Both the position numbers and the translations under genes were made by a program. A stretch of DNA of 64,000 bases from Sipunculus nudus (taxonomy: Eukaryota > Annelida > Sipuncula > Golfingiida > Sipunculidae): the NCBI GenBank assembly GCA_026874595.1, contig CM049307.1:28001079-28065078 (forward strand), given 5' to 3'. Of the stretch, positions 2,578-62,934 are shown piece by piece. Every line of letters starts with the position of its first letter. The first letter of the stretch is position 1. Below the pieces are notes generated by a model. It saw nothing but the letters and a program-made list of their open reading frames with translations, searched no databases and was not told the origin of the DNA.

Positions 2578-4260
2578 GATGTATTTTTCATAAACCCATA
2601 TTGGTTTCTATTTATAATATTTGTTAACACTGACTTAAGCCTAAAGCTGAAAGCTTTTGTCATAATTTTATAGTCTGTATTCAGTAGAGATATTGGACGC
2701 CAATTTTTAGGTTTTGTACGGTCTTTATCCTTTTTTTTCAACAAGTGTGATTACAGCTTGTCTCTGAGATAGTGTTAAAGAGCCATTATCCAAAGAAAAA
2801 TTGAAAGTATTACCTATTATTTGACCCAACTTATTCCAAAACGTTTTTATAAATTCTGATGTGAGGCCATCATTTCCTGGGGATATATTTGGTTTAAATG
2901 TATTCAAAGATTTCAAACATTCTTCAACAGTCAGATATCCTTCACATTTATTTTGCGTTTCAATGGTTAATTTTGGAATGTTATTATTATTTAAAAAATA
3001 TTATCTTTAAAGTCTGTTTGATTATTTGTTTGAGAAGAGTATAATTTAAGGTAGAATCTTTTCTGCTCATTTAATATATTTTGTGTACCTATTATTAGTT
3101 TTCCGTCATCATCTACCAATTTTTTATATGGTTTTTTTGTCCATTTTTTTTTCAAAATTATAAAAACACTTCGTGCTCTTTTCACCTTTTTCTACCCATC
3201 TTATTTTTGCTCTTGTTATTATTCCCTCCACTTGAGTTTCATAAAGATCATATAGTTCTTCTTGAAGCTGTTCATAGTGGTCTTTTTCCTGTTGAATATC
3301 TTCTAGAGCTTCTATTTCTCCAATAAGACACAATTCTCTTTCTTTATCATCTTTCTTTTTTTTTTGCCAATTTTATTGTTTCTTGTCTTATTTTATATTT
3401 AATGAATTCCCAGAGGCTGCTTGGATTCAGCATCTCATTTTCCTTCAGCCATTCATCAATTTAATTATTTATCAAATTTATATAATATTGATTATTAAGA
3501 AGCTGATTATTAAATTTCCAGTATATCCTTTTCCTCTTTCTTCGAATGAATTTTCTTTTATTGTAATTTTTATTCCTGAGTGATCTGACATAAAAGCTGG
3601 AGTGATAGAATTATCTGTTATTTCATCCTGTAAATGACTTGTAATAAAGTAATAGTCTAATCTACTGTAAAACTTTTTTTGTTTTTTGTCTCCATGTGTA
3701 TTGTTCTTTTTTTTGGGTTCTTGATTCTCCATATGTCATTGAGATCAAACTTACTTTTTAATTTTAAGATTTCTTTAATTACTTTTGATTTTAGAGGTGT
3801 TTGTCCACATATTTTATCTCTACTACTGAGAGCACAATTCCAGTCCCCTCCAATAATTATATTTTGTTGGTGTGTTAGCTCCATTTCATTCAATTTTTTA
3901 ATAATACTATTAAAGAACACTATTTGCTTTCCTTCATAATTTGGAGAATAGATGTTTATAATATTATATAAAATGTCGTTTACTTCTATTTGACAAATTA
4001 GTAATCGGCCCTCACTATCATTTAAAACTTTGACTATGTTATATTTAATTTGGTTTGTAAACAAACAAGCTACTCCTCTGCTGTGGTTACTCCCATGACT
4101 AAACAGAATATCCCCCCCCCCCCATTCATTTTTCCAAATATTTTCATCAGTTTTTTGGCTATAGGTCTCTTGCTATAAAATAATGTCTGCTTTATGTCTC
4201 CGTATCCAGCTAAAGATAGCTCTTCTTTTTTTAAAGGTTATAAGGCCTCTTACATTCATA
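2578..4260 (-). pseudogene. LINE ORF2 remnant: endonuclease and N-terminal reverse transcriptase (L1/Tx1-like)
   Basis: Read on the minus strand from about 4259, the translation begins MNVRGL and continues through endonuclease landmarks: a QET motif near 4168, GGDWN near 3850, and SDHSGI near 3570. Next come a linker with a WVEKGEKSTKCF motif and then reverse-transcriptase N-terminal motifs SPGNDGLTSEF and KNWRPISLLNTDYK. This order is that of L1/Tx1-clade non-LTR retrotransposons, which nick target DNA with the endonuclease and reverse-transcribe their RNA. The frame is broken by several shifts and stops, including a poly-C tract at 4112-4123 and a break near 3190-3330. The RT is cut at 2577, before the catalytic YxDD region, where a family P element begins. 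It cannot encode an active enzyme. Confidence 0.85.
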
Positions 4261-10446: not shown

Positions 10447-13280
10447 AACAAGTGAGCCATGGGTCATGACGCTCAGCTGACTGGGAAGAGATTCGCAAAA
10501 GGAAATTTTATCATCAGAATGGTAGTATATACCCATTCCACTGAAGCATCAAACAGATGAACCAACAGGCCAAGATTTGGTCTGTATTTATATATCTCAA
10601 AAATAGAGAAAAAATGTGTAAACTTTAAAAACTAGAATACGGGTAACTGACAAGTGACTACGTGTATCCGCCAAATTCAGAGTGGAACGGGTGAAGTGAG
10701 GCATGGATTGAGTGGCCAAGGGAAATAGAGTGAGGTATGTTGCATATTTGCATGGATGTCTGCAGCCTAAATGTGTATGTAGGTTGTGCCACCTACCACA
10801 AATCCAGAAAGCTGTCCAAGTTGTATGCATATGCAAAATTTTAGGCAGAAAAGTCAAACCACTACATGTATATGAGTGATTTTAGCCCACGGCAGACAAA
10901 CAGACAGACACTGTGCAAAATGGTTGCAGGTGACCCCTCCAGTTTTGTGTATGATAAAGACCTATGTGAGATCTAAACACATGCACAATTTTGGCCCAAT
11001 CAGTCAAATGGTTCCTTAGATATGAGCTTAGATGTGTGCAGCGTTAACTAGAATGTAGGTGGCGCCACCGGTCATAAAATCAAGAAAGCTGTCAAGGATG
11101 TATAAACCTGCAAAATTTCAGGCAGTTATGTCGAACCACTACAGAGAAATGAGTGATTTTAGGCCACGGCAGACTAACAGACAGATGCTGTGCAAAATGT
11201 GCAAAAATGGTTGCAGGTGGCCCCTCCAGTTTTGTGTATGATAAAGACCTATGTGAGATCTATACACATGCAAAATTTTGGCCCAATCGTTCAAACGGTT
11301 CCCGAGATATGAGCTTGGATGTCTGCAGCATAAACTAGTATGTAGGTGGCGCCACCTACAGCTATCAAAGGGCTACATTTGTATCAATTTTATTTCCTGA
11401 TCGGTCAAACGGTTTCCAAGATATGAGCTTGGATGTCATCAGCGTGAACGTGAATGTAGGTGGGGCCACCTTTCGTAAAATCAAGAAAGCTATCCAAGAT
11501 GTATACGCATGACGAATTTCAGGTGAATTAGTCAATTCACTGCAGAGATATGAGTGATTTTAACACAAGGCCGATGAACAGATGGACACTGTGCAAACAT
11601 GGTTACAAGTGGCGCCACCATTTTTTGTGTATGTTATAAAGCAATCCAAGGGCTACATTTGTATAAACTTTATTTCCTGATCGGTCAAACGGTTCCCGAG
11701 ATATGAGGGTTTATGTGTGGAAACAGACCCACAAATGGACGCCGGATAGAGAGGAAAGGTCAGAGGTCAACGCAAATTGGTTAGGCACCATGTGACCCGA
11801 TAATTGGTGTAAGTTTCCGAGAAATCGGTCCATTAGTCTAGAGGAGCTCTCTGGAAACGAACGCGGCGGCGGCGGAGGAACCCGGTCAAAAACTTCGTTT
11901 TGGCAGATACAAAAATACAGGTGGCTCCACCAGTCTGCAGAAACCAATAAAAACACTTAATGGTCAATATCCATGCAAGGAATCATGGTGATCTCTGCAT
12001 TAGTTGTTCAGATACTTCAGCTTTTGTATCAAATTGTCCCTTATTCTGAGGGATACTTCGGAGTCCTATAGCTTGAAGGATTTGGGTAACATAGACCTAA
12101 TTTCAAGTTTCCACAGGCACTTTTCATGGGCCTTCTTGCATGACAAGAATGAAGATTCTAGGTCCAGCTGTTGCGATTTGTACCCTGTTGACAGATAACC
12201 ACATCTTTAAAGGTCTCAAAAAAAAGAGTAAAAAATTCGTAAAAATTTGAAAAAATAGAGGTGGCGCACCCAGTCTGCAGAAACTGAAGGAACAGCTCAT
12301 GATCAATATGTATGCCGAAAATCATGACCATCAGTGTTTTAGTTATTGAGATACTGCAGTTTTTGTATCAAATTTTCCATTATTCTGGGGGGTATTTTGG
12401 AGCCATACAGCTTAAAGAATATGGGTAACAGAGACCTAATTTCAGGTTTCCATGGAGACTTTTCATGGGTCTCCCTGTGTGTCAAGAATGAAGATTCTAG
12501 GTCCAGTTTTTATGATTTGTGCCACGCTAACAGATGACAGCATCCTTAAAGGTCTCAAAAATAGAGGAAAAAATCGTAAAAAATCTAACAATACAGGTTG
12601 CGCCACCAGTCTGCAGAAACCGATGGAACATCTCATGATCAATATGCATGCCAAAAATCATGACCATCACTGATGTAGTTATTGAGATATTGAAGTTTTT
12701 GTATGAAATTTTTTACTATTCTGGGGGGTATTTGGGGCCCCATAGCTCGAAGGATATGGGTAACAGAGACCTAATTTCTGGTTTCCATAGAGACTTTACA
12801 TAGGTCTCTAAGTGTGTCGAAAATGAAGATTCTAGGTCCAGTCGTTACGATTTGTGCCACGCTAACAGATGACAGCATCCTTAAAGGTCTCAAAAATAGA
12901 GAAAAAAATTCGTAAAAAATCTAACAATTCAGGTGGCGCCACCAGTCTGCAGGAAGTGATGTATCATCTCATGATCAATATGTATGCCAAAAATCATGAC
13001 CATCAGTCGAGTTGTTAATGAGATATTGAAGTTTTTGTATGAAATTTTTGACTTTTCTGGGGGGTACTTTGGGGCCCCGTAGCTCAAAGGATATGGGTAA
13101 CAGAGACCTAATTTCTGGTTTCCAAGGAGATTTTTTTATGGACCTCTCAGAATCCCAAGTTACAAGGTTCTAGGTCCAGCGGTTACAATTTGTGCCTGGT
13201 TAACAGACGGACAGACAGACGGACGACGGACAAAGAGTGATCGCTATAGCTCAGATGACTTTCAGTCAGCTGAGCTAAAA
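10447..13280 (+). mobile_element. Family P element, most complete copy: conserved left end, two monomer classes, terminal hairpin
   Basis: The left end ACAAGTGAGCCATGGGTCAT, then GACGCTCAGCTGACTG, matches copies at 39612 and (inverted) 2577; similarity continues ~75 bp in the 2577 copy. Monomers of class I (about 10800-11720; landmarks GGCAGTTATGTC, GATATGAGCTTGGATGT) are followed by class II monomers (palindromes at 11920, 12260, 12596, 12932; spacing 340, 336, 336). The right end is a tract of GACGGAC repeats and a 13-bp-arm hairpin (13248-13276) followed by CTAAAA. No protein is encoded. The architecture (conserved ends, internal satellite, 3' hairpin) resembles bivalve 'pearl'-type and Helitron-like non-autonomous elements; that assignment is inference. 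Confidence 0.65.
13248..13276 (+). repeat. Terminal hairpin of family P element
   Basis: AGCTCAGATGACT, loop TTC, AGTCAGCTGAGCT: 12 of 13 positions pair. It is followed directly by AAAA. Confidence 0.8.
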
Positions 13281-39611: not shown

Positions 39612-41400
39612 CAAGTGACCCATGGGTCATGACGCTCAGCCGACTGACATGTTGACAAAATGTCCTTGCACAGACAACTTATTAAAATAATTTAGGTGGA
39701 ATCATAGTACATGCATATCAGCTCAAGTTCATCAAGACCCATAATCACACAAAATTTGGTGACAATCCATTCGGCCGTTCCTGAGGAACCTGGCAATTTG
39801 TGTGTATTTTGCATTTTTTCTGGGTTGGCCTGTAACTCAAAGAATATAGATCACAGTGACCTAACTTCAGGTTTCTGAGGAAAACTTTTGAGGAACTCTC
39901 AGGATGTCAAGATAGAATATTCTAGGGACAATGCTTTTGATTTGGGCCCTGTTTACAGATTACCGCATCTTTAAAGGTTTCAGAAATAGAGAAAAAAAAT
40001 GCTTTAAAATTAAAAAAAAAATCCAGGTGGCGCCACCAGTTTGCAGGAACTGATGAAACACTCCATGATCAACATGCATACAAATCATGGTGACCAATGC
40101 ATTAGTTGTTCAGATAATGGAGCTTTTGTATCAAACTTTAATTATTCAGGGGGTAATTCTGAGCCCGATAGCTTGGAGAATAAAAGAAAGAAAGACCTAA
40201 TTTCAGGTTTCGAAGGAGACTTTTCATGGACCTCCCTGGATATCAATTTAGAAGATATTAGGTTCTATGGTTATGATTTGTACCTTGCTGGTATCAAATT
40301 TTCAATTATTCTGGGGGTAATTATAAGCCCCATAGCTTGGAGAATATGGGTAACAAAGACCTAATTTCAGGTTTCCAGGTAGATTTTTCATGGACCTCCC
40401 TAGATGTCAAGTAAGGAGATTGTAGGATCAATGGTTACGATTTGTGCCCTGTTAACAGACAACCGCATTTTTAAAGGTCTCAATAATAGAAAAAAATGCT
40501 TAAAAATTCGAAAAAAAATCCAGCTGGTGTCACCAGTCTACAGAAACTGATGAAACACTCCATGATCAATATGCATACAAAAAATCATGGTAATCAATGC
40601 ATTAATTGTTCAGATACTGGAGCTTTTGATTCAAACTTAAAATTATTCCGGAAAACGTCTGAGCCCCATAGCTCAATGATATGGGTAACAGAGACCTAAT
40701 TTCAGGTTTCAAAGGAGACTTTCCATAGACTTCCCTGGATGTCAAGTGATATAGTGGTTATGATTTGTGCCCTGTAAAGAGACAACTGCATCTTTAAATG
40801 TTTCAAAACTATAGCAAATATGCTTTCAAATTCGAAACAAAATCCAGGTGGCGCCACTAGTCTGCAGGAACTGATGAAACACTCCATGATCAATATGCAT
40901 ACAAAGAATCATGGTGATCAATACATTTGTAATTATACTTGGGGGTACTTTCGTGTGTGTAAGCTCAGAAGATATAAGTAACAGACACCTTATTTCAGGT
41001 TTCTGAAGTGAACTTTTGAGGAACTCTCAGGATGTCAAGTTAGAAGATTCTAGGTCCAATATTTATGATTTGTGCCTTGCTTTGGTATCAAATTTCCAAT
41101 TATTATTGAGGTACTTATAAGCCCCATAGCTCGTAGAATATAAGTAACAGAGACCTTATTTTAAGTTTTTACGTTGTTACGATTATTGCCCCGTTAACTG
41201 ACGACCGCATCTTTAAAGGTCTCAAAAATGGAGGAAACAATGCGTAAAAATTAAAAAACTTCCAGGTGGTGCCACAAGTCTGCAGGAACTAATGTAACAC
41301 TCCATGATCAATATGCATGCAAAGAATCATGGTGATCAATGCATTAGTTGTACAGATACTACAGCTTTTGTATCTTACTTTTAATTAGTAAACAAATGCC
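39612..41400 (+). repeat. Family P element, third copy, right end missing
   Basis: The left end ACAAGTGACCCATGGGTCAT, then GACGCTCAGC, is near-identical to 10447. Class II monomers follow, with the palindrome region at 40026, 40503, 40847 and 41262 and the usual ATGATCAATATGCAT and CCTAATTTCAGGTTT phrases. No terminal hairpin is found, so the copy is truncated near 41400. Confidence 0.7.
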
Positions 41401-42158: not shown

Positions 42159-45100
42159 AGGCTCTTTGATCCCGAAATAGTTGTACGTTAATGCAGGTAT
42201 TGGTTCTCTGATCGTGAATCTATGTACGCTGACGGAGGTATGGGTTCTCTGATCCTGACTCTTTCAAGTTGTACGTGTGCTCTCTGACCCAGAATCGTTG
42301 AACGTTGACCGAGAAACAGGCTCTCTGATCCCGAAATAGTTGTACTTTAATGCAGGTATTTGTTCTCTGATCGTGAATCCATGTACATTGACGGAGGTAT
42401 GGGTTCTTTCAAGTTGTACGTGTGCTCTCTGATCCAGAATCGTTGAACGTTGACCGAGAAACAGGCTCTCTGATCCCGAAATAGTTGTACGTTAATGCAG
42501 GTATTTGTTCTCTGATCGTGAATCCATGTACGTTGACGGAGGTATGGGTTCTTTCAAGTTGTACATGTGCTCTCTGATCCAGAATCGTTGAACGTTGACC
42601 GAGAAACAGGCTCTCTGATCCCGAAATAGTTGTACGTTAATGCAGGTATTTGTTCTCTGATCATGAATCCATGTACGTTGACGGAGGTGTGGGTTCTTTC
42701 AAGTTGTACGTGTGCTCTCTGATCCAGAATCGTTGAACGTTGACCGAGAAACAGGCTCTCTGATCCCGAAATAGTTGTACGTTAATGCAGGTATTTGTTC
42801 TCTGATCGTGAATCCATGTACGTTGACGGAGGTATGGGTTCTTTCAAGTTGTACGTGTGCTCTCTGATCCAGAATCGTTGAACGTTGACCGAGAAACAGG
42901 CTCTCTGATCCCGAAATAGTTGTACGTTAATGCAGGTATTTGTTCTCTGATCGTGAATCCATGTACGTTGACGGAGGTATGGGTTCTTTCAAGTTGTACG
43001 TGTGCTCTCTGATCCAGAATCGTTGAACGTTGACCGAGAAACAGGCTCTCTGATCCCGAAATAGTTGTACGTTAATGCAGGTATTTGTTCTCTGATCGTG
43101 AATCCATGTACGTTGACGGAGGTATGGGTTCTTTCAAGTTGTACGTGCGCTCTCTGATCCAGAATCGTTGAACGTTGACCGAGAAACAGGCTCTCTGATC
43201 CCGAAATAGTTGTACGTTAATGCAGGTATTTGTTCTCTGATCGTGAATCCATGTACGTTGACGGAGGTATGGGTTCTTTCAAGTTGTACGTGTGCTCTCT
43301 GATCCAGAATCGTTGAACGTTGACCGAGAAACAGGCTCTCTGATCCCGAAATAGTTGTACGTTAATGCAGGTATTTGTTCTCTGATCGTGAATCCATGTA
43401 CGTTGACGGAGGTATGGGTTCTTTCAAGTTGTACGTGTGCTCTCTGATCCAGAATCGTTGAACGTTGACCGAGAAACAGGCTCTCTGATCCCGAAATAGT
43501 TGTACGTTAATGCAGGTATTTGTTCTCTGATCGTGAATCCATGTACGTTGACGGAGGTATGGGTTCTTTCAAGTTGTACGTGTGCTCTCTGATCCAGAAT
43601 CGTTGAACGTTGACCGAGAAACAGGCTCTCTGATCCCGAAATAGTTGTACGTTAATGCAGGTATTTGTTCTCTGATCGTGAATCCATGTACGTTGACGGA
43701 GGTGTGGGTTCTTTCAAGTTGTACGTGTGCTCTCTGACCCAGAATCGTTGAACGTTGACCGAGAAACAGGCTCTCTGATCCCGAAATAGTTGTACGTTAA
43801 TGCAGGTATTTGTTCTCTGATCGTGAATCCATGTACGTTGACGGAGGTGTGGGTTCTTTCAAGTTGTACGTGTGCTCTCTGATCCAGAATCGTTGAACGT
43901 TGACCGAGAAACAGGCTCTCTGATCCCGAAATAGTTGTACGTTAATGCAGGTATTTGTTCTCTGATCGTGAATCCATGTACGTTGACGGAGGTGTGGGTT
44001 CTTTCAAGTTGTACGTGTGCTCTCTGACCCAGAATCGTTGAACGTTGACCGAGAAACAGGCTCTCTGATCCCGAAATAGTTGTACGTTAATGCAGGTATT
44101 TGTTCTCTGATCGTGAATCCATGTACGTTGACGGAGGTGTGGGTTCTTTCAAGTTGTACGTGTGCTCTCTGATCCAGAATCGTTGAACGTTGACCGAGAA
44201 ACAGGCTCACTGATCCTGAATCTTTGTAGGCTGACGGAGGTATTGGCTATCTCATCCCGAATCGCTGTAAGATGACGAATTATTGTCTCTCTAATCCGCG
44301 ATTTTTGTACGCTGGCAGAGGCATGGGTTCTCTGATACGGGATCATTGCACGTTGACGGATAACGGGCTCTCTGATCCTATATTTTGTTTGTATGTTGAC
44401 GGGTTAGGGTCTCTCTGATCCAGAATCTGTGTACGCTGAAGGAGGGATTGGCTCTCTGATCCCGAATCTTTTTAGGCTGACGGAGGTATGTGCTCTCCAA
44501 TCCAGAATCTGTGTACGCTGACGGAGGTATGGGCTCTCTGATCCTGAATCTTTTTAGGCTGACGGAGGTATGTACTCTCCAATCCAGAATCTGTGTTCGC
44601 TGACGGAGGTATGGGCTCTCTGATCCCGAATCTTTTTAGGCTGACGGAGGTATATGCTCTCCAATCCAGAATCTGTGTACGCTGACGGAGGTATGGGCTC
44701 TCTGATCCCGAATCTTTTTAGGCGGACGGAGGTATGTGCTCTCCAATCCAGAATCTGTGTACGCTGAAGGAGGGATTGGCTCTCTGATCCCGAATCTTTT
44801 TAGGCTGACGGAGGTATGTGCTCTCCAATCCAGAATCTGTGTAACCTGACGGAGGTATGGGCTCTCTGATCCCGAATCTTTTTAGGCTGACGGAGGTATG
44901 TGCTCTCCAATCAAGAATCTGTGTACGCTGACGGAGGTATGGGCTCTCTGATCCCGAATCTTTGTAGGCGGACGGAGGTATGTGCTCTCCAATCCAGAAT
45001 CTGTGTACGCTGACGGAGGTATGGGCTCTCTGATCCCGAATCTTTTTAGGCTGACGGAGGTATGTGCTCTCCAATCCAGAATCTGTGTACGCTGACGGAG

Positions 45101-45350
45101 GTATGGGCTCTCTGATCCCAAATCTTTTTAGGCTGACGGAGGTTTGTGCTCTCCAATCCAGAATCTGTGTACGCTGACGGAGGTATGCATTGGCTCTCTG
45201 ATCACGAATCTTTGTACACCGACGGAGGGATGAGCTTTCTGATTACAAAAATTTGTACGCTGAAGGAGGTATGGGCTCTCGGATCCCGAATCATTGCACC
45301 CTGAATGAGGTATGGGGTTTGCATATCCCCGATCTCTGTACGCGTACAAA
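42159..45350. repeat. Nested satellite: 41-bp monomer organised as 145-bp and 82-bp higher-order units
   Basis: The monomer is close to CTCTCTGATCCCGAATCT, then TTGTACGCTGACGGAGGTAT, GGG. At the left edge is one ~164-bp tetramer (42159-42320). From 42321 to 44205 there are 13 consecutive units of exactly 145 bp, starting at 42321, 42466, 42611 and so on to 44061, nearly identical to one another. Each equals the tetramer less ~19 bp lost between GGGTTCT repeats. From 44206 to 44492 lie diverged single monomers, then eight 82-bp dimers starting at 44493, 44575, 44657 and so on (marker CTCTCC), decaying after 45149. Open frames here are by-products of a stop-poor repeat; 145 and 82 are not multiples of three. 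Confidence 0.95.
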
Positions 45351-53824: not shown

Positions 53825-55355
53825 TTAATGACTTCCTTTCCCTCCGGAGGTCTGCGCCACCCCGCTTTTTACAGCCTGCTCATATGAAGGAGGAGGGGAC
53901 CTGATCAGGCCAAGTTCTATATCATGCTCTAAATCAAACTTATTAAGTGATATGTGGCGCGGACCTTTCTTCTTACCGGAGGTGGTTCTTCTACTGAACG
54001 CTGCAATACTTGAAATGAGAGTTCGCAGACGATCTATGCTGCGAGTGTGGGTCTCCGATTTGGCGGGAGAGAGGCCGGAGCGGCCGGCTGGTTCCAGCTC
54101 TGACCTCCCCGTGGCCCCCTCCTCCCTGCACGTCCCTACCCTCCCATCGTCCCCCGTGGGGGACGAAGCGGTCCGAGCATCCAATAAAAAAGGCACAGAT
54201 TCATATTCAAAAGAGGTTTGGGTTTGTATTTCTCTCCCTTGAGTTTTCCTTGTTGTATACTCAAAATCGCTAGAAAATCCCGAGCTCTGTATCTTAGAGT
54301 CGTCCACGCTGTCTGTTGTGCTATACTGGATTTGATGCATTAATTTAGCGACTTTTCTCTCCACTTCCGAGTCGTCGGTATTGTTTCTTTTAAGAGGAGG
54401 TCGTCGCCGTTCAGATGGTGGACTTTCCTCTTTGTTTGGCTCTGGTTCTTCCTGAATGCTCCATGTGCGCATGCTCCTACTCATGCGTCGTTCGGAGCTT
54501 CGGGTTTGCGGTGGTGAACCAGCTCCATCAATAACACGAGGCATGCGCGGAGGAATGTCGTAGGCCGGATACCCGCTGTCGCCGGCCAGGTTGATCATGC
54601 GGACACCGCGAGCATCCACAGTCATGTCACTCCCAGCAGACCACGCGCTAAAAGCCGAGAGTTTACGAGAATCTGGGACATCAGTGCCCGACCATGCACT
54701 GAATGCTGACAACTTCCGGGCGTCTTGTATTTCTGTAGCGGACCACGCACTCATCGCAGAAAGCTTACGCGAATCGAATGATATCGTACCGATCGATTTG
54801 CGGCCAATAGACAAGATATCGCTGGCTTCCTCGTCCATCCCAGATAAACCTTCCCTTCGCGTGTAGCTAATGCTGTCCCGACTTTGTACGGATACGTCAG
54901 CGTCAAAATCAGACTCCCGACCCGAAAAGTCGCCGAAACGGGAGCTGAGAAAGGTAGAGGCCCGGCTGCTGCGACTTCCGGTCCGTGTACTCCGACTGGT
55001 CGCTATCGACAGAGAATACTCAGAAGAATACGGTAGAAGTTCATTTTCCGTCAGGTAGGGGGCGCCCATTAAGTGAGCCCCATATAGAAGAGTTAGAGAA
55101 TGTCTTGCCATTCCCGGAGGCAGACTCGCTCGGCGGTCATCGATCGTGTCGGCCCGGCTGATCTCGATCCCAGGAAGTTGGTACAGCACGGTGCCCTCTT
55201 TTGTGTTATCAAGGCTGACTCTCTGGGCGATCATTGATAGACCACGTGGACGGGAACCAAAGGGATTACTGTACTCCTCAAGAAACACCTTGCTGCTACT
55301 CCGGCGTGACCTTGACCCTGCATGTGACCCTCCAAATATAGAACCTCGCTCCGAG
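53825..55355 (-). CDS. Terminal coding exon (510 codons incl. stop) of two-pass membrane protein, TMEM200-like
   Basis: Minus-strand exon bounded by the acceptor ACTTTTTTCAG just above 55355 and a TAA stop at 53825-53827. With the upstream exon (62339-62781) it completes codon 148 and continues in frame (SERGSIFGGSHAGSR). It encodes the long tail of the protein, with no membrane segment. The tail has Ser/Arg-rich stretches (TSRSTRTGSRSSRAS) and basic phosphorylation-like sites (RRMSRS, RRASLP). A tandem repeat lies at about residues 341-398 (RKLSAFSAWS three times). A conserved-looking block, VERKVAKLMHQIQYS, follows. A PPSY motif at about residues 636-639 fits binding to WW domains, such as NEDD4-type ubiquitin ligases. 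Codon use and GC content are well above the flank, so the coding call is strong; the family name is less sure. Confidence 0.85.
53882..53893 (-). other. PPxY motif (PPSY) near C-terminus
   Basis: Context SPPPSYEQAV, 19 residues before the stop. PPxY motifs bind WW domains of NEDD4/ITCH-type ligases. Confidence 0.6.
54605..54778 (-). repeat. In-frame tandem protein repeat, 17-18 residues
   Basis: FDSRKLSAMSAWSATEIQ, DARKLSAFSAWSGTDVP, DSRKLSAFSAWSAGSDMTV, then a partial DARG: three full copies within the terminal exon. Confidence 0.85.
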
Positions 55356-56296
55356 CTGAAAAAAGTAAGAACATTTGCGTCTACGCTAAATGGATCACAT
55401 AAATACTATACGCTTAATAATACGGATTCAACATAAAACTGAAACTATTCCCCTTTCAAAATTAAGTTAAGAAATGGATAAGAAATGCATGATAGAAAAA
55501 ATGTCCTTCAGCATGTAAATAAAATACCTTTACATAATCTTAAACCATTGTCGGGCATTTGTCATCGGGCTTTTGTCATCACACTGACATTCTCTGTTTA
55601 TTTTCGTTTTAGAATAACCACTGGCAGAATTCTTTTTTTTTTATTAATGACGCGCTAGTGTTGCAGGATTCAACCTGGGACAGACTATAACCTATTATCT
55701 AGATTGTTAACACAAGAGTGTGAGCAAGGTTGTCTTCTAAATTTAGCTCAGACGTAATCAGAACGGTTGCGGTCTTTTATTCCTCATGTCAGAATCCAGG
55801 AGACCATCACAAACACAGTCTGGGAAAACATCTCACAGTCCAGAAAACACAAATCTTCCCCACGGCAGTAATTGAAACTAACAACCGATCGGCATGCGAC
55901 AGCTGCAGGCTCTCGGTGAAGGCTTACACTCCCGCTCTACCCTTAAGCAGCAAAAAAGGTTGGTGCCAAATACAAATTCTATCAATCAAAATCTGCTTTA
56001 TAAGAATGAATGTCTGCGCACGCGCAGTTGGCCCATATACCTTTCAATATGAACGCGCTAACAATAATCACTGCCTGTGAGCGCAAATTTATTCGTTCAT
56101 GCTTGTTGAATTTTCTCACCCTAGGCTTTGAGTATCGCTCATATAAATATTGGATGAAAGAACGTCTTTGCATTTCAATTTTACTATTCAATATAAGGCG
56201 GCTCATCTGGGTTCCTGTGGCTACCTGGCGCCAAACATATGTATCTTTTCAATGTCTGGGTTAACAGAGCACTTTCTCGAATACTAAAGTATATAT

Positions 56297-56685
56297 TGTT
56301 ACGAAGACAAATTGCTGAAGGGGAAATATTGGGCCGATCCTGGATTCGACCCCATTTTGATGGCGCATATATCCGGCGTTCCAACCGCTTCGCTAGAAAA
56401 GTTAGGTCCGCTTTTATGTCACCCCGTAACACACCACCTCTTAAGAGCGTTCTGATATCAGAACAAGACTAATTATCCCAGGAGTCACACTTTGGTGAGC
56501 TTATTCCCTGGGCCACAAAGTTTACTGTCACGTTCGACGAGTCCCCATTTTGTTACGAAGACAAATTATTCAGGGGAAAATACTGGGCCGATCCGGAATT
56601 CGAACCCATGTTGGTGGCGAGTCTGGCGTACCAACAAGCTTCACTAGCGAGGCAGTTCGGTCCGCTTTTATGTCACCCCGTAACA
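56297..56685 (-). mobile_element. TRIM-like miniature LTR retroelement (389 bp) with tRNA-like LTRs
   Basis: Two 135-bp direct repeats (56297-56431 and 56551-56685, about three-quarters identical by eye) each start TGTTACG and end CGTAACA. They flank a 119-bp interior. ATAT lies on both sides (56293-56296, 56686-56689), a possible 4-bp target duplication. Read on the minus strand, the first bases after the 5' LTR are AAA then TGGGGACTCGTCG (56535-56547). This resembles a primer-binding site for tRNA-Pro. Just before the 3' LTR is a purine-rich AAGAGGTGGTG (56432-56442), a polypurine-tract candidate. Each LTR carries Pol III-like boxes on the minus strand: B-box GGTTCGAATTCC in the second repeat and GGGTCGAATCC in the first, with TCGCTAGTGAAG upstream. 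There is no coding capacity. Confidence 0.7.
56535..56547 (-). other. Candidate primer-binding site of the TRIM-like element
   Basis: TGGGGACTCGTCG on the minus strand, 3 nt after the LTR end; it starts with the TGG expected to pair with a tRNA CCA end. Confidence 0.55.
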
Positions 56686-56999
56686 ATATTAATTTATTAT
56701 AAAATATTAAGCTGAAAACGTGTAACATATATCTGAATACAACGTCCTATGGGTTATAATATTTTAAATATCCATCGATGTAGCTCAGGTAGTAGGTTTA
56801 ACATCGAATGGACAGAGATTCTTATTAAATTACGGACTTATTTCCTTAGGTTCCATTGAAGATTACTATGTATTGAAGGGATCCATAATCAAATGATGAC
56901 ACGTGATACTAGAGTGACTTATTTTTATAAAGGATAGGTCCATGGCCTGTTCATTGCTCTGTCTATTGAATGAGAATAAAATACAGTACAATTAGAATA

Positions 57000-57905: not shown

Positions 57906-58727
57906 TAAACTTTTTCGAGTCACTCGTGTACAGCGGCATTACATTTTCACAGCATATTTTGTACAGACAATTTGAAGATTCTCCAGAAAAGGATACACTG
58001 GGCCAAAGCACCACAGTGGCTCTCATTTAGACCATGTTTGGACAAATCTATCTCCACTTCCAACACCTCAAGGAATTTGGAACTATTATAGTGACCATCA
58101 ACAAATTTACATTTATATTCATATGCAGCCATTCTACACAACACAGCGCATCTGTAGACCCAGGCCCAAGATCAGCTGAATCTCAGTTCAAGAGAATGAC
58201 CATTTTACCACTACTAACCAGCAGCTGACTCTCCCTAATACTACAAGGTTCATGTACAGAATCAAGCCTCACATATAATAAGGCCAATTCAACATACAAA
58301 TACTGGAAAATATTTGACACAGCCCAGCCAAGACTTCAACTAAGAATAATTGGCACAGGTATTACACACATACAGAAACTAAAATTGCATGCAGTTCTTT
58401 TATATCATTATTTTGATAGCTTTGAACATTTTCACTTTACCTTATCTTTTCTTCCAGTTTATACATGTCAGCTGTTCTTTACAGGGCCTTTATTTTCAAA
58501 TATCACTCTATCAGCCCATGCTACCAAAGTACACCAAATTCACAGTACTTCAATTTATAATGACTGCATCTTTTGCGGGGCCCATCCTAACCTGTCAGTT
58601 TTCTAGTTATTTTGCCATATGGATTACATGTTTTTTATGCACCTGGTTAGGAATAATCCAGAAGTCATAACCTGTCAATATTGTTAATACACTAGAGCAA
58701 ATCTCCAAGGTTACAGCCAGCTTTTCC

Positions 58728-58800
58728 CCATTACCGACGGGGTTCGAACCGGGGTCCTTCAGCTCCGAAGTCTATCCTCTTAACCACTAGGTTACGTCCT
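58728..58800 (-). mobile_element. tRNA-derived SINE head
   Basis: Minus strand: CCTAGTGGTTAAGAGG (A box; a CCT/AGG D-stem), then CTTCGGAGCTGAAG (a small stem-loop at the anticodon-arm position), then CCCCGGTTCGAACCCC (B box). The layout is clearly tRNA-like, but mismatches in the T-stem and lack of a clear acceptor stem argue against a functional tRNA. Confidence 0.6.
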
Positions 58801-62057: not shown

Positions 62058-62338
62058 TATCATGATTTGTAAGGATAAGAATTTATCATTTTAGCTTAAT
62101 CATTTAGGAGGCAATCTGCCTATCCCAGCTGGGTAATTTTAAATCGAAATCTGATTTCCCAGGGGTATTATAATTGAGAGTGAGGGCAATGTGGAGCTTG
62201 ATAAATCTTCACACATCCGGATGGGAGTGCTAGCCGATAATGCATTATAGAATGGTTAAAGATATTTATGACAAATTACTATATGTTGAACATGGACATA
62301 AAACAACATATATCAAAAAGCCACCTATCTATATTTAC

Positions 62339-62781
62339 CTGTACTCAACCGCAACCTGTTCGCGCATGCGCTGAAGAATCTGTCGTCTGGCTCGGATCTC
62401 CTCTTGGTAGTCGGGAGAGTTGATTGGATCAGGGGGCTGACTTATCCGGCGTCTGATGCTGTCGCGCGCGTTCATTTGTAGCTGCCTTCGCTTCCACTCT
62501 TTATTCCAAATTTGTGACATTATACACCCCGCAAGCCATAACACGACCGTGCTTGCCAAACACACAGGCCCCAGAACCTGCATAGGAGCTAGGTCGATGC
62601 CTGCGTGGTACTTGCCGCTGTATCCAAATACGGTAATGGTCACGCCCACAACAAAGAAGACTACGGACAGCAAGAACATCGTCCTTCCCATCGTTTCCAG
62701 GCGCTTCCATTGTCGATGGACATATGTTCCTGGCTTAGCGGGTTCTTTCCCCTTATTTGTAAATACCATAGTTTTCCACAT
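62339..62781 (-). CDS. First coding exon (147 codons + 2 nt) of two-pass membrane protein, TMEM200-like
   Basis: ATG at 62781 is the first Met after an in-frame TAA about 12 nt upstream. A basic N-terminus (VHRQWKRLETMGR) precedes a first membrane segment at about residues 34-54 (MFLLSVVFFVVGVTITVFGY). A short ~13-residue loop (SGKYHAGIDLAPM) follows, then a second segment at about 68-91 (VLGPVCLASTVVLWLAGCIM). A strongly basic stretch (NKEWKRRQLQ, RDSIRRR) and a charged helix (EEIRARRQILQRMREQ) come next. Two closely spaced hydrophobic helices with an LGP motif at the second, followed by a long variable tail, resemble the TMEM200 family. Vertebrate members usually have a longer loop, so this is a tentative match. 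The exon ends TAC AG before donor GTAAAT and joins in frame to 55355; total product 657 residues. Confidence 0.8.
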
Positions 62782-62934
62782 TTGGACTGATTATGTGTAA
62801 ACTCAAATAGATAAAAAAATTCTGTAGATTCAAAACCACGTCGGGTCAGGTCAGGTTGTGCGAGTCATCTGTGGTGTGCCTCCTGTGCTCGCTACTTCCG
62901 GTTGCTTGGAGCAGGATAAGCTGATTACAGGGCC
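62782..62934 (-). other. Probable 5' UTR part of the same exon, with upstream acceptor
   Basis: TATGTTTTTCTTACAG ends at 62935 and is a strong acceptor. The 153 nt between it and the ATG contain stops and no competing long frame. This implies at least one further non-coding exon upstream. Confidence 0.45.

What the first reader, a model, noticed from the sequence alone, without database searches (positions are those of the whole stretch)
56297..56685. Miniature LTR element whose LTRs look like tRNA genes
Seen: two 135-bp TG...CA direct repeats, a 119-bp interior, matching ATAT flanks, a TGG-starting primer-site candidate 3 nt after one repeat and a purine tract before the other, all consistent with minus-strand orientation. 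Each repeat also carries Pol III A/B-box-like sequence. On that strand GGACCGA and TCGGCCC can pair at 6 of 7 positions, like an acceptor stem. Known: Cassandra TRIMs in plants carry 5S rRNA promoters in their LTRs. Inference: this is an animal analogue with a tRNA-type promoter, possibly transcribed by Pol III yet copied as an LTR element.
Basis: partly seen in the sequence, partly recalled or inferred. Interest (0 to 1): 0.72.

Follow-up and report, generated by a model that had tools for sequence, protein, structure and literature searches.

The report
Tiny retrotransposon with tRNA-like ends
This is an old, short, protein-less retrotransposon, probably from an animal genome, whose end repeats carry a tRNA-type promoter; elements of this kind were described in 2024 under the name Helenus, so it is real but not a new kind of mobile DNA.

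Summary
Window 56297-56685 is two 135-bp repeats (TGTTACG...CGTAACA) around a 119-bp interior, with ATAT on both sides. On the minus strand a primer site matching the tRNA-Pro 3' end at 11 of 12 positions starts 3 nt after the upstream repeat. It is the only such match in 64 kb (0.07 expected). The downstream repeat has the best tRNA-type A+B box score of 2840 stretches tested; the upstream one has a good B box and a decayed A box. The best reading is a TRIM (terminal-repeat retrotransposon in miniature), not a duplicated SINE.

Two parts of the finding fail. The "acceptor stem" is at chance level (823 of 2000 shuffles have one as good) and out of tRNA register. And it is not a new kind: Kojima (2024, PMC10886601) named TRIMs with tRNA-like LTRs "Helenus", reporting 4-bp target duplications in animals and Gypsy-type primer sites, tRNA-Pro included in bivalves. 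This copy fits the points I could test.

Host, copy number, solo LTRs and similarity to published Helenus consensuses could not be tested: the genome search did not complete ten times. One oddity remains: differences between the LTRs cluster in the middle, with 27 and 17 end positions identical.

The parts
56297..56685 (-). Whole TRIM element (389 bp), Helenus type
56551..56685 (-). 5' (upstream) LTR, 135 bp
   Evidence: TG..CA ends seen
56297..56431 (-). 3' (downstream) LTR, 135 bp
   Evidence: TG..CA ends seen
56432..56550 (-). Interior, 119 bp, too short to code for replication proteins
   Evidence: the stop-to-stop list has two open stretches of 91 and 94 aa that overlap the element's downstream half, not searched against families
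56536..56547 (-). Primer-binding site, 11 of 12 to the tRNA-Pro 3' end complement (recalled)
   Evidence: only match in the window, 0.07 expected
56432..56442 (-). Weak polypurine tract AAGAGGTGGTG
   Evidence: 9 of 11 purines
56342..56352 (-). B box of the 3' LTR, GGGTCGAATCC (9 of 10)
56381..56395 (-). A box of the 3' LTR, TAGCGAAGCGGTTGG (9 of 9)
56596..56606 (-). B box of the 5' LTR, GGTTCGAATTC (9 of 10)
   Evidence: position; the scan chose another, out-of-register site (7 of 9)
56577..56580 (-). TTTT in the 5' LTR, 16 nt after the B box: possible Pol III stop
56397..56400 (-). TTTT in the 3' LTR just before its A box: possible Cassandra-like 3' end of the RNA
   Evidence: role inferred
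56449..56464 (.). 16-nt perfect palindrome in the interior
   Evidence: 35 of 20000 shuffles of the interior hold one as long; the window as a whole has 55 palindrome centres of 16 nt or more, and the 25 listed all lie in one AT run
56293..56296 (.). ATAT, likely target-site duplication, left copy
56686..56689 (.). ATAT, likely target-site duplication, right copy

Best explanation
It is an old, non-autonomous LTR retrotransposon of the TRIM type with a tRNA-derived promoter region in each LTR: an animal-type Helenus element on the minus strand. Shown by sequence: paired LTRs with TG..CA ends, a 4-bp flank match, a tRNA-Pro primer site, A and B boxes (strong in the 3' LTR, partly decayed in the 5' LTR) and an interior too short to code for enzymes. 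Inferred: RNA starts near the A box of the 5' LTR, most likely by Pol III, and runs into the 3' LTR; a cellular tRNA-Pro primes first-strand DNA; the reverse transcriptase and integrase of a full-length Gypsy (Ty3) element copy and insert it. This copy has since decayed.
For: LTR pair at E = 4e-30; both LTR ends kept, with 27 and 17 identical end positions; ATAT flanks, chance 0.005-0.007; primer site unique in the window and 3 nt from the LTR; best A+B box score of 2840 stretches in the 3' LTR; A-to-B start distances of 40 and 43 nt, close to the 44 recalled for tRNA genes. Match to Helenus as published: TRIM length 311-1263 bp, 4-bp duplications in animals, conserved boxes A and B, tRNA-Pro primer in some bivalve families, shared with Gypsy-13_CGi.
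Against: Only one copy was seen; no genome copies, solo LTRs or consensus (own-genome search unanswered). The purine tract is weak. The 5' LTR scores 16 in the box scan, as do 15 other stretches or more of the 2840. No tRNA model match. LTR differences are unevenly spread. A TTTT at 56580-56577 could stop Pol III inside the 5' LTR.
Confidence: 0.85

Rival explanations
1. Two copies of a tRNA-derived SINE lie close together or in tandem, and the LTR look is accidental.
For: Both repeats hold tRNA-type boxes, and a SINE-like tRNA head is present elsewhere in the window at 58726-58799.
Against: TG..CA inverted ends and no A-rich or other 3' tail; a tRNA-Pro primer site exactly after one repeat; the flank match surrounds the two-repeat unit.
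Confidence: 0.04
2. An ordinary TRIM whose box-like words are chance or decayed remains, without any tRNA-derived promoter; it would be a plain Pol II-type TRIM.
For: No tRNA model match; the acceptor stem is at chance level; the 5' LTR and the plus strand of the 3' LTR also score 16.
Against: The 3' LTR has the top score of 2840 stretches, with A and B at tRNA spacing. The B box lies at the same place in both LTRs. Rfam also missed the tRNA-like SINE head at 58726-58799, so a missing tRNA match is weak evidence.
Confidence: 0.1
3. The element is a TRIM, but its two LTRs come from different copies or subfamilies, through gene conversion or recombination in a tandem array. This can hold together with the best explanation.
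For: All 23 difference events fall in the middle; the first 27 and last 17 positions are identical (P 6.3e-4; 3.3e-4 to 3.9e-4 under four gap schemes; statistic chosen after seeing the data). Tandem arrays of TRIMs are reported (PMC6934838; PMC10886601).
Against: The ATAT match argues for one insertion. 6 of 19 substitutions are in a CpG context, so uneven mutation could contribute.
Confidence: 0.3

Closest known systems
Helenus, animal families (Kojima 2024, PMC10886601)
   Same: TRIM with tRNA-type A and B boxes in the LTRs; 4-bp duplication; Gypsy-type primer site; tRNA-Pro primer as in some bivalve families; length within 311-1263 bp.
   Different: Sequence similarity to a published consensus was not tested (supplements and Repbase not open to me). 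This is one decayed copy with 15% substitution between LTRs.
Cassandra (plants)
   Same: Miniature LTR element with a small-RNA promoter inside the LTRs (described in PMC10886601).
   Different: Cassandra carries 5S rRNA sequence; this element carries tRNA-type boxes. No 5S match was found in the window by Rfam at gathering score.
biv-TRIM (bivalves; Satovic 2019, PMC6934838)
   Same: Animal TRIM; palindromes or inverted repeats in the inner domain.
   Different: biv-TRIM has 202-218 bp repeats, a 77-80 bp interior, mostly PPT GGGGAGA and no clear primer site; the terms RNA polymerase III and box B do not occur in its text.

Membership tests
TRIM | Two direct terminal repeats of LTR type around a short non-coding interior, under 1000 bp | tested here: met
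   389 bp, 135-bp repeats, 119-bp interior
TRIM | Primer-binding site just after the 5' LTR | tested here: met
   11 of 12 to tRNA-Pro (recalled), 3 nt after the LTR, only match in the window
TRIM | Polypurine tract before the 3' LTR | tested here: inconclusive
   9 of 11 purines
Helenus | tRNA-derived sequence in the LTRs with boxes A and B conserved | tested here: met
   Met in the 3' LTR (18 of 19, top of 2840); in the 5' LTR the B box is good and the A box decayed. Met at the level of boxes only: no tRNA model match
Helenus | 4-bp target-site duplication (animal families) | tested here: met
   ATAT on both sides, chance 0.005-0.007 at this one locus
Helenus | Repeated family with a consensus and solo LTRs in the genome | not testable with these tools
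   Own-genome search unanswered in ten calls
Helenus | Sequence similarity to published Helenus families | not testable with these tools
   Supplement look-ups capped at 0; Repbase not held
Functional tRNA gene | Cloverleaf with acceptor stem | tested here: not met
   ARAGORN none, Rfam tRNA none, stem at chance level and out of register
SINE (tRNA-derived) | tRNA head plus 3' tail, duplication around each single unit | tested here: not met
   No tail; TG..CA ends; flank match around the two-repeat unit
Cassandra | 5S rRNA sequence in the LTRs | tested here: not met
   No 5S rRNA match in the window at gathering score, nor in 56200-56800 with E up to 10

The most novel reading that the evidence does not exclude
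The two LTRs are a mosaic of two Helenus subfamilies: the ends are shared and the tRNA-like core was exchanged after insertion, by gene conversion or array recombination. Pol III promoter cores would then be swapped between TRIM copies in the genome, possibly in an animal group where Helenus has not been listed.
Probability: 0.15. Interest if true: 0.35.

Novelty: new member of a known kind. Interest (0 to 1): 0.22.

Why it matters
It is another likely instance of a tRNA-promoter TRIM, recognisable from structure even in one decayed copy. The general question, whether Pol III RNA is the template that such LTR elements copy, is still open according to Kojima's text. This copy adds a small testable detail: T4 runs, possible Pol III stops, lie at different places in its two LTRs. 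Otherwise it is ordinary mobile DNA.

Tried and rejected
Duplicated SINE: rejected on the ends, the primer site and the flanks. Functional tRNA gene: rejected. Further copies inside the window: none by blastn; apart from the two repeats, hits with E up to 10 were 26 nt or shorter. RNA folding of both LTRs and the interior: no more stable than shuffles (z -0.21, -0.42 and 0.44).

Relatives in public collections. An LTR-end pattern gave 0 matches in viral contigs and in genome contigs. An LTR-end-plus-primer-site pattern gave 0 in viral contigs. A variant of it gave 0 in genome contigs; that variant asks for the intact tRNA-Pro complement further in, so it would not have found this element itself. 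Distant blastn against phages gave no match. These collections are viral or prokaryotic, so the misses say little about an animal repeat.

Host. Pfam on four proteins and four overlapping ones did not name it. That the host is an animal is an inference from the repeats and weak protein matches, not shown.

Papers. PMC10886601: outline, parts 1-4 of 6 and the figures/tables section. PMC6934838: outline, Results part 1 of 2, and passages. PMC12859917: two passages. PMC3532108 (ant TRIM) and PMC4558846 (Echinococcus TRIM): search listing only. Paper searches.

Full report
What is there. Positions 56297-56431 and 56551-56685 are two 135-bp direct repeats separated by 119 bp. They match each other at E = 4e-30 within the window. 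A global alignment gives 112 identical of 139 columns, 19 substitutions (10 transitions, 9 transversions), 8 gap columns and K2P 0.16. Each repeat begins TGTTACG and ends CGTAACA, which is a 7-bp inverted end of the TG..CA kind. ATAT precedes and follows the unit; the chance of a 4-mer match in local sequence is 0.005 to 0.007.

Orientation. On the minus strand, 3 nt after the upstream repeat, lies TGGGGACTCGTC. It matches the complement of the tRNA-Pro 3' end (recalled, not from a call) at 11 of 12 positions. It is the only match with up to one mismatch in the 64-kb window, against a mean of 0.07 in 100 shuffles, of which 7 had at least one. Before the downstream repeat lies AAGAGGTGGTG, 9 of 11 purines, which is weak support for a polypurine tract. 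Together these make it an LTR element read on the minus strand. An interior of 119 bp cannot code for its own enzymes, so it must borrow them.

tRNA-like part. With recalled consensus words (A box TRGCNNARY, 1 to 4 free bases, GG; B box GGTTCRANYCC) the downstream LTR scores 18 of 19. That is the best of 2840 overlapping 135-nt stretches over both strands; the two stretches that scored 18 both overlap it. The upstream LTR scores 16, with the scan choosing an A-box site out of tRNA register. Against this reading: 20 of the 2840 stretches score 16 or more, several overlapping each other, and the plus strand of the downstream LTR also scores 16. The case for the promoter therefore rests on the downstream LTR, on the B box at the same place in both LTRs, and on A-to-B start distances of 40 and 43 nt, near the 44 recalled for tRNA genes.

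What fails. A pairing of 6 of 7 in the same zones appears in 823 of 2000 shuffles of the upstream LTR. Its 5' half begins 17 and 14 nt before the A box, not 7 as in a tRNA. ARAGORN, Rfam at gathering scores on the window and Rfam with E up to 10 on 56200-56800 give no tRNA. Rfam was also blind to the tRNA-like SINE head at 58726-58799, so it is not sensitive to diverged copies. Folding energies are those of shuffles.

What it is. Kojima 2024 (PMC10886601; [quoted passage not shown] Animal families make 4-bp duplications. Bivalve families use several primers, among them tRNA-Pro, as does Gypsy-13_CGi. [quoted passage not shown] Lengths run from 311 to 1263 bp. The window element fits each of these features that I could test. 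A 2026 meeting report cites the class again (PMC12859917, two passages). It is filed as a probable new member, not a new kind; direct sequence similarity to a published family remains untested.

How it probably works (inference). RNA starts near the A box of the 5' LTR, tRNA-Pro primes DNA synthesis, and a full-length Gypsy element supplies reverse transcriptase and integrase. In this copy TTTT at 56580-56577, 16 nt after the B box, would tend to stop Pol III inside the 5' LTR. TTTT at 56400-56397 lies in the 3' LTR just before its A box, where the RNA could end with a short terminal repeat, as reported for Cassandra (18 bp; PMC10886601). The flank beyond the 3' LTR has no TTTT down to 56151. 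No transcript was seen. A 16-nt perfect palindrome in the interior (56449-56464) appears in 35 of 20000 shuffles of the interior. It could be a dimer or packaging hairpin, and palindromes and inverted repeats are also reported in the interior of biv-TRIM (PMC6934838). The window as a whole holds 55 palindrome centres of 16 nt or more, and the 25 shown all lie in one AT run.

An oddity. If both LTRs were identical at insertion and then decayed neutrally, their differences should be spread evenly. Instead all 23 events lie between the first 27 and the last 17 positions, which are identical. P is 6.3e-4, and 3.3e-4 to 3.9e-4 under four gap schemes; the statistic was chosen after looking. Gene conversion from another copy, array recombination or uneven mutation (6 of 19 substitutions in a CpG context) could explain it. 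One copy cannot decide.

Limits. Copy number, solo LTRs, consensus and host are therefore unknown. Pattern scans of viral and prokaryotic collections gave 0 matches and phages none, as one would expect for an animal repeat.

Noticed in passing
58726-58799, minus strand: tRNA-like head with good A and B boxes (GGTTCGAACCCC), on the same strand about 2 kb from the element; it looks like a tRNA-derived SINE. Stretches over it score up to 17 in the box scan; Rfam finds no tRNA there.
   Followed up: partly
42159-45343: Satellite-like tandem array: 13.5 copies of a 145-bp unit at 99% matches (42260-44220), then a more diverged part with 82- and 41-bp periods.
   Followed up: partly
1-2420, 11911-13232 and 39833-41387: A dispersed repeat family with internal repeats, on both strands, 70-93% alike between places.
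   Followed up: no
3657-4172, minus strand: LINE-like endonuclease fragment, weak Exo_endo_phos match (E 0.0019, below the Pfam cut-off).
   Followed up: partly
53825-55405 and 62335-62790, minus strand: Two long open stretches that look like exons of host genes. The first has no Pfam match (53825-55288 tested); the second has a TMEM174 match below the cut-off (E 4.3e-5).
   Followed up: partly
56297-56685: Differences between the two LTRs are confined to the middle, 27 and 17 end positions identical, which even decay after insertion would rarely give.
   Followed up: partly
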